Notes under the pieces: generated by a model
The model's input: only the letters and a program-made list of their open reading frames with translations
Database searches by the model: none
What the model was told of the DNA's origin: nothing
Translations under genes and position numbers: made by a program
DNA from: Desulfobacter hydrogenophilus
GTDB lineage: Bacteria; Desulfobacterota; Desulfobacteria; Desulfobacterales; Desulfobacteraceae
Direction: 5' to 3'
Assembly (NCBI RefSeq): GCF_004319545.1
Contig: NZ_CP036313.1
Span: 3,288,501 to 3,352,500 of the forward strand
Length of the DNA stretch: 64,000 nucleotides
Shown here: positions 43,905-47,570 of the stretch, piece by piece
Numbering within the stretch: the stretch's first letter is position 1
How the letters are laid out: every line of letters starts with the position of its first letter

Positions 43905-44234
43905 TTAATGGCTAAGACGAGAACTGACGAGCCTATTTATGCTTACCCCTGACTCTGCTGCTTGAATTGCTAAATTTCTATGAACTTTTGGTGGAACACG
44001 AACCATAAACTTACCGCTGTAATTTTTAGAAGCAATTGGTAGGGGAATCTTTTCATCATTATTTTTCATATCTTTAATTACCAATTCCACTGTCCTACGA
44101 ATACCTTTTAATGCAGATTCAGGAGATTCGGCGAGCCAACTTAAACTTGGGAATTCAGCGCATAAGCCGATATATTCTTCGTCCTCAGGAGACCAGGTAA
44201 CTCTATATGTATAATGATCATTTTGTAGTGTCAC
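43905..44234 (-). CDS. hicB: HicB-family antitoxin
   Basis: Antitoxin of a HicAB type II system, 109 residues. The partial RNase-H-like HicB domain is at 8-65 (YRVTWSPEDEEYIGLCAEFPSL, SPESALKGIRRTVELV). A ribbon-helix-helix-like DNA-binding tail is at 70-109 (SGKFMVRVPPKVHRNLAIQAAESGVSINRLVS). It should bind HicA and repress the operon. GTG 44234 follows GGAGG with 6 bp spacing and overlaps hicA by 17 bp, giving toxin-first order as in many HicAB modules. It sits inside a broken GxxExxY gene. Confidence 0.92.
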   Translation of the reverse strand: MTLQNDHYTYRVTWSPEDEEYIGLCAEFPSLSWLAESPESALKGIRRTVELVIKDMKNNDEKIPLPIASKNYSGKFMVRVPPKVHRNLAIQAAESGVSINRLVSSRLSH

Positions 44235-44478
44235 TTTCTACCTCCAATTTTTCAATAGCTTTGATAACTTGCTTAACCTGATAGATTTTGGCTTTTCCTT
44301 TGCTGTTTTGAATATTCACCCGAGGGTCACCCTGCCATGGTGTTTTATATATTCGATGGCTACTACCAGATTGACGAGCCTTTCCAAAATAATGTTCACA
44401 AACCCGGCATAAATCTGTGAATTTCACGTTGGCTGAATTTTTGTAAATCTCATTTAATATTTTTTCAATTTGGCTCAT
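44218..44478 (-). CDS. hicA: HicA-family mRNA interferase toxin
   Basis: A dsRBD-like ribosome-independent mRNA interferase, 86 residues. The catalytic His is in GSSHRIYKTP, and GDPRVNIQNSKGKAKIYQVKQVIKAIE is the family C-terminus. It is slightly longer than the minimal 60-residue HicA because of an N-terminal helix (IEKILNEIYKNSANVKFTDL). The gene precedes hicB with a 17-bp overlap. The toxin looks intact. Confidence 0.9.
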   Translation of the reverse strand: MSQIEKILNEIYKNSANVKFTDLCRVCEHYFGKARQSGSSHRIYKTPWQGDPRVNIQNSKGKAKIYQVKQVIKAIEKLEVESDTTK

Positions 44479-44778: not shown

Positions 44779-44999
44779 ATTTGGGCTTGGTTCTAATTTC
44801 GTCCACTGCGTAGGTTGGGTTGGCCCCAAATATGATCAAATTCGAATAGTTGAAAACCCAATAAACCGGCCTTCAAGCTCAATACGCATATTGACATTTT
44901 GACAATATGTTGTTTTAACCATGCAAAATAGATTTAAGGAGGCACCGTCAGTTACCCAAGCCTAAAGGCCTGGGTTTCCACAGCTAAAGGAAAAAATCG
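44779..44999. other. Non-coding stretch with a hairpin ahead of the AbrB antitoxin gene
   Basis: No gene was found in 44779-44999. CCCAAGCCTAAAGGCCTGGG at 44955-44974 forms a small hairpin after GTCAGTTA. Its form recalls the end hairpins of IS200/IS605-type elements, so it may be an old element end; this is weak. Confidence 0.3.
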
Positions 45000-45263
45000 A
45001 TGATCGTTACCATAGACAAAAGAGGCAGCATAAGCCTGCCGGTGGCCATTAGAAAAGAACTTGGCATTACACATGGAAGTCATCTCGAGCTCACGATAAA
45101 GCCAGGAGGCGCCCTGGTTCTTCAACCGGTCGAATTTTACAAGACAATTAGGCTTAATGCATCCGGTTTAGAAAAACTCAAGGATGCCCGGTCTTCGGAA
45201 GAATGCAGACTGCCGGATTGGTTTGAAGAGGAGCGAGACAATGCCGGAGTTGATTCCGAATAA
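45000..45263 (+). CDS. AbrB/MazE-type (SpoVT-AbrB) antitoxin
   Basis: An 87-residue swapped-hairpin DNA-binding protein: MIVTIDKRGSISLPVAIRKE then LGITHGSHLELTIKPGGALVLQPV. The C-terminal 35 residues (DARSSEECRLPDWFEEERDN) would form the toxin-binding tail. Upstream AAAGGAAAAAATCG provides a ribosome site. A toxin gene began at 45241, overlapping it by 23 bp, but is cut after about 17 codons by the IscB element. Confidence 0.88.
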   Translation: MIVTIDKRGSISLPVAIRKELGITHGSHLELTIKPGGALVLQPVEFYKTIRLNASGLEKLKDARSSEECRLPDWFEEERDNAGVDSE

Positions 45264-45290
45264 AAAATTTGTTTCCGATTTGGAAAGTTT
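45241..45290 (+). pseudogene. Toxin gene start (RelE/ParE-like), truncated by the IscB element
   Basis: ATG 45241 gives MPELIPNKKFVSDLESF, typical of RelE/ParE-superfamily N-termini, then runs into the end of the IscB element and stops soon after. It overlaps the antitoxin gene as TA toxins usually do. Family assignment rests on 17 residues only. Confidence 0.5.
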
Positions 45291-46699
45291 CAACTCCCCG
45301 CCAAGGAGTCCCCTTCCTGAGCGATAGCGAAGGTGGGGGAGGAATTGGCGTAGTAACTGACGATTGATCTATTTTCATGTATTTTTCTAACTTCCCGCAA
45401 ATTTACCTGTGTATATTTTTTCTCTGGATTTTTGATATAATTCCCTTTGATATCGACGATTCGACAAGATGAAGTGCCGGTAAAACCGGATATAAAACCG
45501 ACCCTCCCCTTGTACTGCACCGTATCCCACCGGTTAAAGCCTTTCAGGGTAAATACGTTCTTTTTATTCCGTTTCTGTGTTCGATTCGGTGCTTTTCTGC
45601 CTTTTCTTGCAGTTGCTTCATGCAGGCTTCTTTTCCGTAATTGCACATGTTTTGTCTGTATCTGCCGGTCCAAAGGACTGGCCTGTTTATCTGCAATGAG
45701 AACAGCATCGTTGACGTGGGATTTTTCGATTCCCGCCTTATTTCGATGATGGGCAGTGATATAACCGAATGTCGTCCGTAATGGTGCGATTCGGGACAAC
45801 TCCGCTTGCAGATAGTTTTTACCTTGCTGAACATGCGCGGCTGAAATGTAAAAAGCGCTTTTCTGCTTCGGAAGTTTCAGGCCGTCTTTATGGTGCTTTT
45901 CATGGCAACCTTCACATAGCGTCATCAGGTTCGACAATTTGTTCGTACCGCCGTCGGCTCTCGGCTTTATATGATGGCATTGCAGTTTTGATTCCGCCCC
46001 ACAAACACGGCATTTGAATTTGTCGCGAACCCAACACGCCTGCTTGAAATTTTTGTGATACAATAAGTCTCCATGCTGATACTGCTTGCCTGAAATGCCC
46101 GGGTTCTCCATTGCTTGAAAATCAAAATAAACGTCTTCCAGAATAATGTTTGAGATCGGCAATGGGATTTGTCTCACAACCCGGATAATCGCCTCTTTCT
46201 TTGCCTTGATTGACGGCGGGATTCTAAAGGCTTTCTTTTGGATGCCGGCATATTTCTGGTGAACACCCTCTGCTTTTCTTAGACAGGCCCGGCATATTAC
46301 TTTGGATGCCGGAGCGTTCTTCCCACATACCTTGCATGTCGGAATGGACTGTTTTCTATTGAGAAATCTGGGTTTCCGGTATCTTGTTTTCCGATGTCGT
46401 CTGGATCTTCGATATTGTCTCCGGGTATCCAGTTTTGACTTGATATCCGAACGTAAAACCACCTCTTGCTGAAATAGTGATTGACCATGGGATACCGCGG
46501 CAATACCCACATGGATTCCTCCGTCATCAATGCCGACCGTCACAGGCTGTATGTGTTCCGTGGTCTCATAAAGCAGTTGAATGGCAAACGGCGTCCGTTG
46601 GATCACCCTGGCCTTACCTTTCTTGAGCAGAATCCTGGCATTTGCAGGATTCGTCGGCATCAGCCATTTGCCGGATTGTGATTTGACGTACACTTTCAT
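45290..46699 (-). CDS. iscB: RNA-guided endonuclease IscB
   Basis: A 469-residue IscB, the class ancestral to Cas9. Order of parts: PLMP-like N-terminus (KWLMPTNPANARILLKKGKA), RuvC-I with Asp58 (TVGIDDGGIHVGIA), arginine-rich bridge helix (RRQYRRSRRHRKTRYRKPRF), and a Cys4 zinc ribbon at 122-139 not found in all IscBs. RuvC-II follows with Glu188 (IILEDVYFD). The HNH domain has CHHIKPRADGGTNKLSNLMT with zinc Cys pairs at 230/233 and 262/265. RuvC-III has His328 and Asp331 (KSHVNDAVLIA). All catalytic residues are present, so it is probably active. The C-terminal tail SSPTFAIAQEGDSLAGS overlaps the element end. The omega-RNA region lies directly upstream. Confidence 0.95.
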   Translation of the reverse strand: MKVYVKSQSGKWLMPTNPANARILLKKGKARVIQRTPFAIQLLYETTEHIQPVTVGIDDGGIHVGIAAVSHGQSLFQQEVVLRSDIKSKLDTRRQYRRSRRHRKTRYRKPRFLNRKQSIPTCKVCGKNAPASKVICRACLRKAEGVHQKYAGIQKKAFRIPPSIKAKKEAIIRVVRQIPLPISNIILEDVYFDFQAMENPGISGKQYQHGDLLYHKNFKQACWVRDKFKCRVCGAESKLQCHHIKPRADGGTNKLSNLMTLCEGCHEKHHKDGLKLPKQKSAFYISAAHVQQGKNYLQAELSRIAPLRTTFGYITAHHRNKAGIEKSHVNDAVLIADKQASPLDRQIQTKHVQLRKRSLHEATARKGRKAPNRTQKRNKKNVFTLKGFNRWDTVQYKGRVGFISGFTGTSSCRIVDIKGNYIKNPEKKYTQVNLREVRKIHENRSIVSYYANSSPTFAIAQEGDSLAGS

Positions 46700-46957
46700 G
46701 AAAAAACCTTTCGGTTATCGACACCCTCCGAAGAGGGGTAAGATTCGCCTCGCCAATGTTCAGCAGGCTTCGCAATGTGGTTGACCGCCCCTACCTCACA
46801 GGGCTTTTACAGAGCCACGATAGTGCTTTGGACTGGCGAATATATCCAAAGGTATCTACATCCTGCCGAACGTAGTCCCCAATAACGAGGACTTAGGCTA
46901 GTCAACTCGGGCTTTTACAAGCCCCTTCTGAATCTCTGATTCAGGAGGGGTAGTTGA
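46700..46957 (-). ncRNA. Omega-RNA scaffold of the IscB element
   Basis: The 258 bp upstream of iscB has no gene but strong structure on the minus strand. GTCAACT at 46957-46951 pairs with AGTTGAC at 46907-46901. Inside are CCCCTCCTGAATC/GATTCAGAAGGGG and GGGCTTGTAAAAGCCC. Further arms include CCTCGTTATTGGGG and CCCTCTTCGGAGGG near the iscB start. In known IscB systems the omega-RNA lies here with its guide at the 5' end, which would be 46958 to about 46977. Boundaries are inferred from the family. Confidence 0.8.
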
Positions 46958-47235
46958 CATTCATGAGTCATGATCGTTGCGAGATTGTCCGTCATGATCA
47001 CTGAGTCGAAAAGCAAACCCGAACATTTCCCCTCTTCGCTGTCAAGACGTACCAAAACCCGGCTCGGGTGGTTGGCCCGCTGTAAATTACTGCTGACCAT
47101 GGCCACAATGCGTTGAGAAAGACCTGTAGCCAAATCGTCTGAATCCACAATGATAACCGGACGTTTCTTAGCAGTCCTTAAATCAGAATTTGGAAAGACC
47201 ACCAAAGCAATATCACCTCGCCTAAAGCTTGTCAT
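46958..47235 (-). pseudogene. MazF/PemK-family toxin, 3' end cut by the IscB element
   Basis: An mRNA interferase of the MazF/PemK class: FRRGDIALVVFPNSDLRTAK, then KRPVIIVDSDDL, IVAMVSSN and SGLLFDSVIMTDNLATIMTH. The native end is lost: after MTHE the frame enters the element (CQLPLLNQRF) and stops at 46915. About the last 15-20 residues are replaced, so activity is doubtful. ATG 47235 overlaps the antitoxin gene by 14 bp. The last bases before the junction occupy the guide position of the IscB omega-RNA. Confidence 0.82.
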
Positions 47236-47458
47236 AAGCATCCATCTCCGGACGTTCCCAATCATCAGCAAAACATTTCAAGCGGTTTCTTAAATCCATT
47301 GCATTCTCGGGACCAATGCCTTGCTTCTGCAAATCCACTTCTTGCCCATGTTCATCGACCAGAAATGTGATCAGTACCGGGATTTGATCAACATCTGCTG
47401 GTGGAGAGTTGATGAATTCGACACGCCCGTCCTTATAAATTCCTCTTACTGTCTGCAT
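47222..47458 (-). CDS. Antitoxin partner of the MazF-like toxin
   Basis: A 78-residue protein (MQTVRGIYKDGRVEFINSPP then VLITFLVDEHGQEVDLQ) with a short beta-rich N-terminus as in AF2212/DUF104-like antitoxins and a helical C-terminus. ATG 47458 is preferred over 47479 because GGAGAAATTATC lies just before it. Its stop overlaps the toxin start by 14 bp, the usual antitoxin-first TA layout. The family is inferred mainly from position. Confidence 0.7.
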   Translation of the reverse strand: MQTVRGIYKDGRVEFINSPPADVDQIPVLITFLVDEHGQEVDLQKQGIGPENAMDLRNRLKCFADDWERPEMDAYDKL

Positions 47459-47570
47459 GATAATTTCTCCTGATAGCAAACGGATATTAATCCATTATGG
47501 ATACATTTTTTTTATGATAGCATTGATACACAACCTGTCAAGACAACAGTAACTGGGGGACTTCAAATAA

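What the first reader, a model, noticed from the sequence alone, without database searches (positions are those of the whole stretch)
45290..46977. Apparently complete IscB OMEGA system with visible guide position
Seen: a 469-residue IscB with all RuvC and HNH residues, an upstream 258-bp structured region closing with GTCAACT/AGTTGAC, and no tnpA. Known: IscB uses an upstream omega-RNA whose guide is at the 5' end, read from flanking DNA. Inferred: the guide here is 46958-46977 (minus strand), the end of the cut mazF-like gene. This would be an active, compact RNA-guided nuclease from a Desulfobacterota host with an additional Cys4 zinc ribbon between bridge helix and RuvC-II.
Basis: partly seen in the sequence, partly recalled or inferred. 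Interest (0 to 1): 0.75.

Follow-up and report, generated by a model that had tools for sequence, protein, structure and literature searches.

The report
Intact mobile IscB RNA-guided DNA cutter
A sulfate-reducing bacterium (probably a Desulfobacter) carries a small mobile element with a Cas9-like protein and its guide RNA; it is a well-preserved member of a known family, and comparing its relatives shows where the element ends and which DNA it should recognise.

Summary
Largely confirmed, ordinary in kind. The 469-aa protein is an IscB (NCBIfam guided_IscB, 287 bits, cut-off 175), and the DNA upstream is a full-length HEARO/omega-RNA (Rfam RF02033, 125.7 bits). Ten near-full-length copies (the window's and nine in relatives) define the element as 45294-46958. 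It starts at the omega-RNA; TTRA follows the right end at 19 of 19 junctions with a complete right end, so I infer a 3' TAM of about TTRAA. At a sister insertion, the unoccupied site in two relatives is the 20-nt guide followed directly by TTGAAA, nothing duplicated. The window's guide plus TTRA (3 mismatches allowed) fits two places in 19 genomes: its own locus, where GTCA replaces TTRA, and a relative's uninterrupted mazF-like gene. Corrections: the guide is 46959-46978; the GTCAACT/AGTTGAC helix closes only the first 58 nt; the Cys4 ribbon is a clade trait with printed counterparts. The right flank does not continue mazF: probably rearranged. Cleavage and transcription are not shown. In passing: omega-RNAs without an iscB gene are about as common in this genus as those with one.

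The parts
45294..46958 (-). the whole mobile element (1665 bp): omega-RNA scaffold, IscB gene, right end
   Evidence: left boundary from 10 copies whose similarity begins at GTCAAC; right boundary by homology with sister copy L057, whose unoccupied site shows the junction 1716|3381 in two genomes
46959..46978 (-). predicted 20-nt guide, from the flanking mazF-like gene
   Evidence: bases directly 5' of the omega-RNA start; a length of 20 is assumed, not measured
46738..46958 (-). omega-RNA (HEARO) scaffold
   Evidence: Rfam RF02033 125.7 bits, full length; fold z -3.67; 9 of 63 predicted consensus pairs kept with changes on both sides among 18 copies
45290..46699 (-). IscB coding sequence, 469 aa
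   Evidence: NCBIfam NF040563 guided_IscB 287.3 bits, cut-off 175; Pfam RRXRR and HNH
45288..45293 (-). TTGAAA: inferred target-adjacent motif / target site just outside the element; its TTGA supplies the IscB stop codon
   Evidence: TTRA at 19 of 19 distinct junctions with a complete right end; stop codon position
45293..45309 (-). right-end inverted repeat ACTCC...GGAGT (last T belongs to the flank)
   Evidence: read in the sequence; assignment as transposon end hairpin is inference
46283..46336 (-). codons of the Cys4 zinc ribbon (residues 122-139) between bridge helix and RuvC-II
   Evidence: C122, C125, C136, C139; alignment A1; zinc binding not tested
45887..46012 (-). codons of the HNH domain (residues 230-271) with its own Cys4 (230, 233, 262, 265)
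   Evidence: Pfam PF01844
46915..47232 (-). mazF/PemK-like frame cut by the element (host part 46959-47232)
   Evidence: Pfam PF02452 43.6 bits, profile 1-83 of 109; homologue in G013 runs on past the boundary
47222..47458 (-). small ORF ahead of the mazF-like gene, in the antitoxin position
   Evidence: ORF; no Pfam family; role is inference
47514..47541 (-). promoter-like site (TTGACA-16-TATCAT, 11 of 12) that could feed the mazF-like gene, the guide and the omega-RNA
   Evidence: consensus scan: 3 promoter-like sites found in the region, 4.2 expected by chance

Best explanation
This is an intact IscB (OMEGA) element of the IS200/IS605 type without its own transposase. Inferred mechanism: a transcript entering from the mazF-like gene yields an omega-RNA whose 5' guide is the last 20 nt of the flanking DNA. 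IscB binds the scaffold and cuts DNA that matches the guide and carries a 3' TAM of about TTRAA. The element's own copy is spared because the guide is followed there by GTCA (the omega-RNA start) and not TTRA. The matching unoccupied allele, as left after excision or present in a sister chromosome or relative, would be cut and repaired from the occupied copy, which keeps or spreads the element. Excision and insertion would be done by a Y1 transposase in trans. Shown here: protein family, omega-RNA, element ends, conserved TTRA, natural unoccupied sites that equal guide plus TTRA for a sister copy. Inferred: transcription, cleavage, TAM as read by the enzyme, homing, transposase in trans.
For: Protein: guided_IscB equivalog over cut-off; best solved relatives by sequence are IscBs (TbaIscB 9k30 first); the fold search ranks IscB and IsrB structures first (mean pLDDT 72.1). 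RNA: RF02033 full length, shuffle z -3.67. Ends: 10 near-full-length copies with unrelated flanks; unoccupied L057 site contiguous in G027 and G021, no duplication. TAM: T-T-R-A at 19 of 19 distinct junctions with a complete right end, 5th base A in 17, 6th A in 15. Guide logic: sister guide 20 of 20 plus TTGAAA in two genomes; window guide plus TTRA with up to 3 mismatches hits 2 places in 19 genomes, namely itself with GTCA in place of TTRA and the homologous gene in G013 where it is uninterrupted at that point; reversed-pattern control 0. Selection: dN/dS 0.07-0.11 in 8 of 8 comparisons over 449 codons (L055 left out because it is out of frame). Precedent for the motif: DtIsrB prefers TTGA (PMC9581776, passages). 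The homing idea is described for TnpB (PMC12477157, passages).
Against: The window's right flank does not continue the mazF-like gene of G013, and an 82-base tail of that gene has no match in the genome (the tool notes that an empty answer without a positive control shows nothing). So the window copy was rearranged on one side or is not a simple insertion. The G013 target differs from the window guide at 3 of 20 positions. Of nine natural sites homologous to copy L058's left flank (9 of 12 listed places fetched), one has TTGAAA at the junction, one TTTGAAA, and seven TCGAA or TAGAA. One mini-element of the family, L168, has a right end two bases shorter and no TTRA after it; the end patterns did not cover it and were written after most junctions had been seen. 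No unoccupied site for a mini-element guide was found. No transcriptome. The most abundant Y1 transposase family of the genome has unrelated ends, so the transposase is unidentified. The structure model is of middling quality.
Confidence: 0.85

Rival explanations
1. A stranded copy: structurally intact but no longer mobile or expressed, kept by chance and on the way to decay like its neighbours in this genome.
For: All other IscB matches found in the genome are broken or fragments; a solo omega-RNA and an ORF piece lie in a duplicated segment some 30-40 kb away; one flank is rearranged.
Against: Catalytic residues, both Cys4 sets and most omega-RNA pairs are kept; dN/dS 0.07-0.11 against copies in relatives, though this measures the family and not this copy.
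Confidence: 0.3
2. A host-serving system: the cell keeps IscB to protect against mobile DNA or to regulate the mazF-like locus with the flank-derived guide.
For: It lies among toxin-antitoxin-like genes; at three of ten left ends the flanking frame is of toxin-antitoxin type by Pfam: mazF-like, PIN, MqsA-like (the MqsA match is below its cut-off).
Against: No exact match of the 20-nt guide in the viral contig collection; copies sit at unrelated sites in relatives, as for a transposon; PADLOC gives only partial matches around the HNH region.
Confidence: 0.07
3. The conserved TTRA is only the insertion preference of the transposase and is not read by IscB as a TAM.
For: TTRA was derived from junctions alone; no cleavage data.
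Against: For TnpB the TAM is described as matching the transposase's cleavage site (PMC12477157, passages), and the related IsrB prefers TTGA (PMC9581776, passages).
Confidence: 0.15

Closest known systems
IscB/HEARO OMEGA systems (NCBIfam NF040563; Rfam RF02033; OgeuIscB PDB 7xht, TbaIscB PDB 9k30)
   Same: RRXRR/PLMP start, RuvC-I, bridge helix, RuvC-II, HNH, RuvC-III, C-terminal domain; upstream omega-RNA; 5' guide from flanking DNA; adjacent tnpA is rare in the family (PMC9755519, passages)
   Different: inferred TAM TTRAA (OrufIscB NTAAA in PMC13180657, passages; OgeuIscB NWRRNA is recall); Cys4 ribbon where OgeuIscB has a beta-hairpin REC linker (same paper)
CzcbIscB / TbaIscB and the REC-like zinc finger of type II-D Cas9
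   Same: small cysteine-rich insertion between bridge helix and RuvC-II, after an FNNR-like motif (here FLNR, by reading)
   Different: homology of this Cys4 to the CzcbIscB finger was not tested; TbaIscB shows only part of the cysteine pattern in the alignment
DtIsrB (Desulfovirgula, PDB 8dmb)
   Same: TTGA TAM preference; similar first 117 residues
   Different: IsrB lacks the HNH domain and only nicks (PMC9581776, passages)

Membership tests
IscB (guided_IscB, NF040563) | profile score over the curated cut-off | tested here: met
   287.3 bits against 175
IscB (guided_IscB, NF040563) | split RuvC with HNH inserted, catalytic residues kept | tested here: met
   D58, E188, H242/H243, H328, D331 in invariant columns; OgeuIscB residues from PMC9640706 (passages), matched by motif
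IscB (guided_IscB, NF040563) | upstream HEARO/omega-RNA | tested here: met
   RF02033, 125.7 bits, 1-211 of 211
IscB (guided_IscB, NF040563) | guide read from DNA flanking the element, target with adjacent motif | tested here: met
   by sequence only: natural unoccupied sites equal guide plus TTGAAA, 20 of 20, for sister copy L057 in two genomes; window guide 17 of 20 plus TTGA in G013
IscB (guided_IscB, NF040563) | RNA-guided DNA cleavage | not testable with these tools
   needs protein and RNA
IS200/IS605-type element | insertion without target duplication at a short fixed motif | tested here: met
   for sister copy L057, junction exact in two genomes; TTRA 19 of 19 complete right ends; not shown for the window copy itself
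IS200/IS605-type element | own Y1 transposase (often absent from IscB elements) | tested here: not met
   no Y1_Tnp match lies next to the element; 25 matches elsewhere in the genome
IscB with REC-like zinc finger | zinc finger between bridge helix and RuvC-II | tested here: inconclusive
   Cys4 at the right place; zinc binding and homology to the CzcbIscB finger not tested; model confidence low there

The most novel reading that the evidence does not exclude
In Desulfobacter, IscB works as a shared service: many omega-RNA-only mini-elements, each with its own flank-derived guide and intact ends, are mobilised and kept by a few IscB proteins and a transposase in trans. This would make a dispersed guide repertoire that lets parasitic RNA genes home. 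A sister family would go further by inserting at ATGA start codons, so that each guide RNA is made from the host gene's own promoter.
Probability: 0.3. Interest if true: 0.6.

Novelty: new member of a known kind. Interest (0 to 1): 0.38.

Why it matters
It is a compact, apparently intact IscB from a sulfate reducer, with element ends, omega-RNA and an inferred TAM (TTRAA), so it can be tested directly. Close relatives with natural unoccupied sites give a clean setting for testing how IscB helps a transposon persist. The omega-RNA-only mini-elements make guides acting in trans testable.

Tried and rejected
A full unoccupied site for the window copy: the left half was found in G013, the right half was not; the tail of the G013 gene has no match in the window's genome. 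The nine near-identical Y1 transposase copies as mobilising partner (8 of the 9 compared): their ends (TAATTC...ATGACT) are unrelated to the IscB ends; the other Y1 matches were not examined. A solo right end in G023 as a possible tnpA-bearing partner: of 13 listed ORFs of 70 aa or more I recognised no transposase, by reading only, no family search. Viral targets of the guide: none exact for 20 nt; two 18-base matches not followed. An unoccupied site for mini-element L121: none with up to 3 mismatches beyond itself. Close relatives in viral contigs: none. Papers not held: Altae-Tran 2021, Weinberg 2009, Meers 2023; anything said of them is recall. The tree was built with the insert's columns kept, by the quick method, and a pattern first mislabelled two rows that do carry the four cysteines (P0015, P0032).

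Full report
What is there. On the minus strand, 45290-46699 codes for a 469-residue protein. It matches Pfam RRXRR (172 bits) and HNH (41 bits) and the NCBIfam equivalog guided_IscB with 287.3 bits against a cut-off of 175. Among solved structures the best relative by sequence is TbaIscB (9k30, E 2.5e-53), then HfmIscB and entries of OgeuIscB type. A predicted model (mean pLDDT 72.1) ranks IscB and IsrB structures first in a fold search. Upstream, 46738-46958 is a full-length HEARO RNA, RF02033, 125.7 bits, gathering score 83. It folds at -82 kcal/mol against -64.6 +/- 4.75 in shuffles. Among 18 aligned copies 9 of 63 consensus pairs are kept through changes on both sides in at least one sequence (an RNAalifold prediction on a MAFFT alignment of close relatives, covariation term only -1.75, so modest evidence).

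The omega-RNA starts at G46958, so the adjacent 20 nt are 46959-46978, one base off the stated guide. The GTCAACT/AGTTGAC helix pairs 46958-46952 with 46907-46901 and closes only the first 58 nt. The Cys4 at 122, 125, 136, 139 is real, separate from the Cys4 inside the HNH (230, 233, 262, 265).

Is the ribbon special? In an alignment of 29 chosen homologues it is present in the close relatives and in one distant one (P0068), and absent in a sister group at about 60% identity. On a tree of 108 of 121 proteins (those of 380-520 aa among the window's protein and the best 120 of 2789 homologues), 35 rows were labelled with the four cysteines. Two more carry them and had been missed by the pattern, giving 37 of 108. 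They surround a group of 19 without the ribbon, which fits one loss; but the tree is quick, some branches are long, and the insert's columns were kept. TbaIscB has a partly matching cysteine pattern there. PMC13180657 (passages) describes a REC-like zinc finger at this place in CzcbIscB; PMC9755519 (passages) reports Zn-binding ribbon motifs in HEARO nucleases. So it is a known theme.

Element ends and target motif. In 26 of 86 genomes of the family the protein has some match at E 0.001 or better, partial and distant ones included. Ten near-full-length copies (the window's and nine in relatives; one, L055, is out of frame and three, L054, L059 and L060, have an earlier stop) share sequence from GTCAAC on the left to about ...GGGGAG on the right, with unrelated flanks beyond. 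For copy L057 the flanks are contiguous in two other genomes, G027 and G021, with the element exactly missing and nothing duplicated (58 and 51 bases next to the junction on the left align without a break, and further left both genomes have another gap). This sets the right end before TTGAAA, and by homology the window element is 45294-46958. At 19 of 19 distinct right junctions that a set of end patterns found in all loci held at the time, the next bases are TTRA (R: G 14, A 5); the fifth base is A in 17 and the sixth in 15. The patterns name only the element's own end, but were written after most junctions had been seen. One mini-element, L168, ends two bases earlier, is followed by TCTCC and was not covered. 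The IscB stop codon lies in the flanking motif in 6 of 10 copies.

Guide logic. In G027 and G021 the unoccupied site reads as the 20-nt guide of L057, 20 of 20, followed by TTGAAA; in G000, G013 and G012 the homologous site also has TTGAAA but a diverged target. For copy L058, nine natural sites homologous to its left flank were read, from eight genomes (9 of 12 places listed). One (G018) has TTGAAAC at the junction, one (G019) begins with TTTGAAA, and seven have TCGAA or TAGAA, which is against a strict motif in those diverged sites. For the window, G013 carries the homologous mazF-like gene (with a different insert elsewhere in it) running uninterrupted past the boundary, with TTGA right there. 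The window guide plus TTRA, allowing 3 mismatches, hits 2 places in 19 genomes: the element itself, where GTCA stands in place of TTRA, and that G013 gene, 3 mismatches in the guide; the reversed control hits none. This is what is expected if the guide spares its own locus and marks the unoccupied allele. The same test with the guide of mini-element L121 found only the element itself.

What does not fit. The window's right flank does not continue the G013 gene, and an 82-base tail of that gene has no match in the genome (no positive control). The copy was probably rearranged on its right side. No transposase partner was found.

Is it working? Against eight copies in relatives dN/dS is 0.07-0.11 over 449 codons (L055 left out as out of frame). 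The family is under purifying selection; this does not prove that the window copy is active. All other IscB matches found in its genome are broken or fragmentary: and for the most complete one (4872309-4873421) two partial frames of 178 and 154 aa. A promoter-like site (11 of 12) lies at 47541-47514 in the right direction, and no terminator-like site was reported between it and the element on that strand, but promoter-like sites are no more common than in shuffles. In 6 of 10 copies an open frame of at least 45 codons runs into the left end in the omega-RNA's direction. Five of these six have Pfam families on that strand (mazF-like, radical SAM/TRAM, PIN, CheB/CheR, CobW/HypB) and one (L060) has none. 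Antisense frames exist in five of the six, in L060 longer than the sense frame. In three copies no frame runs in, and in one a sense frame ends just before the element. This fits transcription of the guide from host genes but is a small sample.

Related observations. Of 60 HEARO loci fetched from the genus (61 of the 70 matches counting the window's own), 28 are followed by at least 900 bp of IscB, 3 by 100-899 bp, 27 by less than 100 bp, and 2 lie too near a contig end to tell. Not all 27 are intact units. Four of the window's family (L121, L123, L170, L176; 324-341 bp) keep omega-RNA, both ends and the TTRA junction. I recall that omega-RNAs away from iscB genes were noted in Altae-Tran 2021, which is not held. 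In a sister IscB family the right junction is ATGA, and in 16 of 23 junctions that ATG opens at least 80 codons, against 191 of 940 ATGA sites in the same stretches (binomial p 4.7e-7). L139 and L155 were dropped because the matched end was not the family's; L155 would have counted for the reading. One of the two end patterns required an ATG. I recall ATGA/GTGA insertion from Weinberg 2009, not held; one search for HEARO with ATGA listed nine papers, none relevant by title.

Host.

Verdict. It is a new member of a known kind.

Noticed in passing
L121, L123, L170, L176 and other HEARO loci of the genus: Omega-RNAs without an IscB gene are as frequent as those with one (27 against 28 of 60 loci); four of the window's family are mini-elements of 324-341 bp with both ends and the TTRA junction.
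   Followed up: partly
L137-L159, L163, L165, L167, L175 (sister IscB family and its mini-elements): Right junction is ATGA and the ATG opens at least 80 codons in 16 of 23 junctions (20% of ATGA sites in the same stretches do), so the guide would come from the gene's leader.
   Followed up: partly
L018 (G000:C1:3365500-3375500): A duplicated segment holds two complementary remnants of another copy of the element: one keeps the omega-RNA and loses the gene, the other keeps part of the gene and loses the omega-RNA.
   Followed up: partly
window 45290-45293: The IscB stop codon is supplied by the flanking target motif (AG|TTGA); same arrangement in 6 of 10 copies.
   Followed up: yes
window 44850-45288: The right flank does not continue the mazF-like gene cut on the left, and one search lists only short or weak matches for it in the genus; origin unexplained.
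   Followed up: partly
L134 (G027:C1:3839552-3839771): A truncated element whose guide position looks like the right end of another such element, as if one had inserted next to another.
   Followed up: no
window 43905-44478: A HicA/HicB-like toxin-antitoxin pair near the element (HicA match below its Pfam cut-off).
   Followed up: no
L088 (G013:C1:3270271-3272529): The homologous mazF-like gene of a relative is interrupted by a different insert of about 1.75 kb.
   Followed up: no
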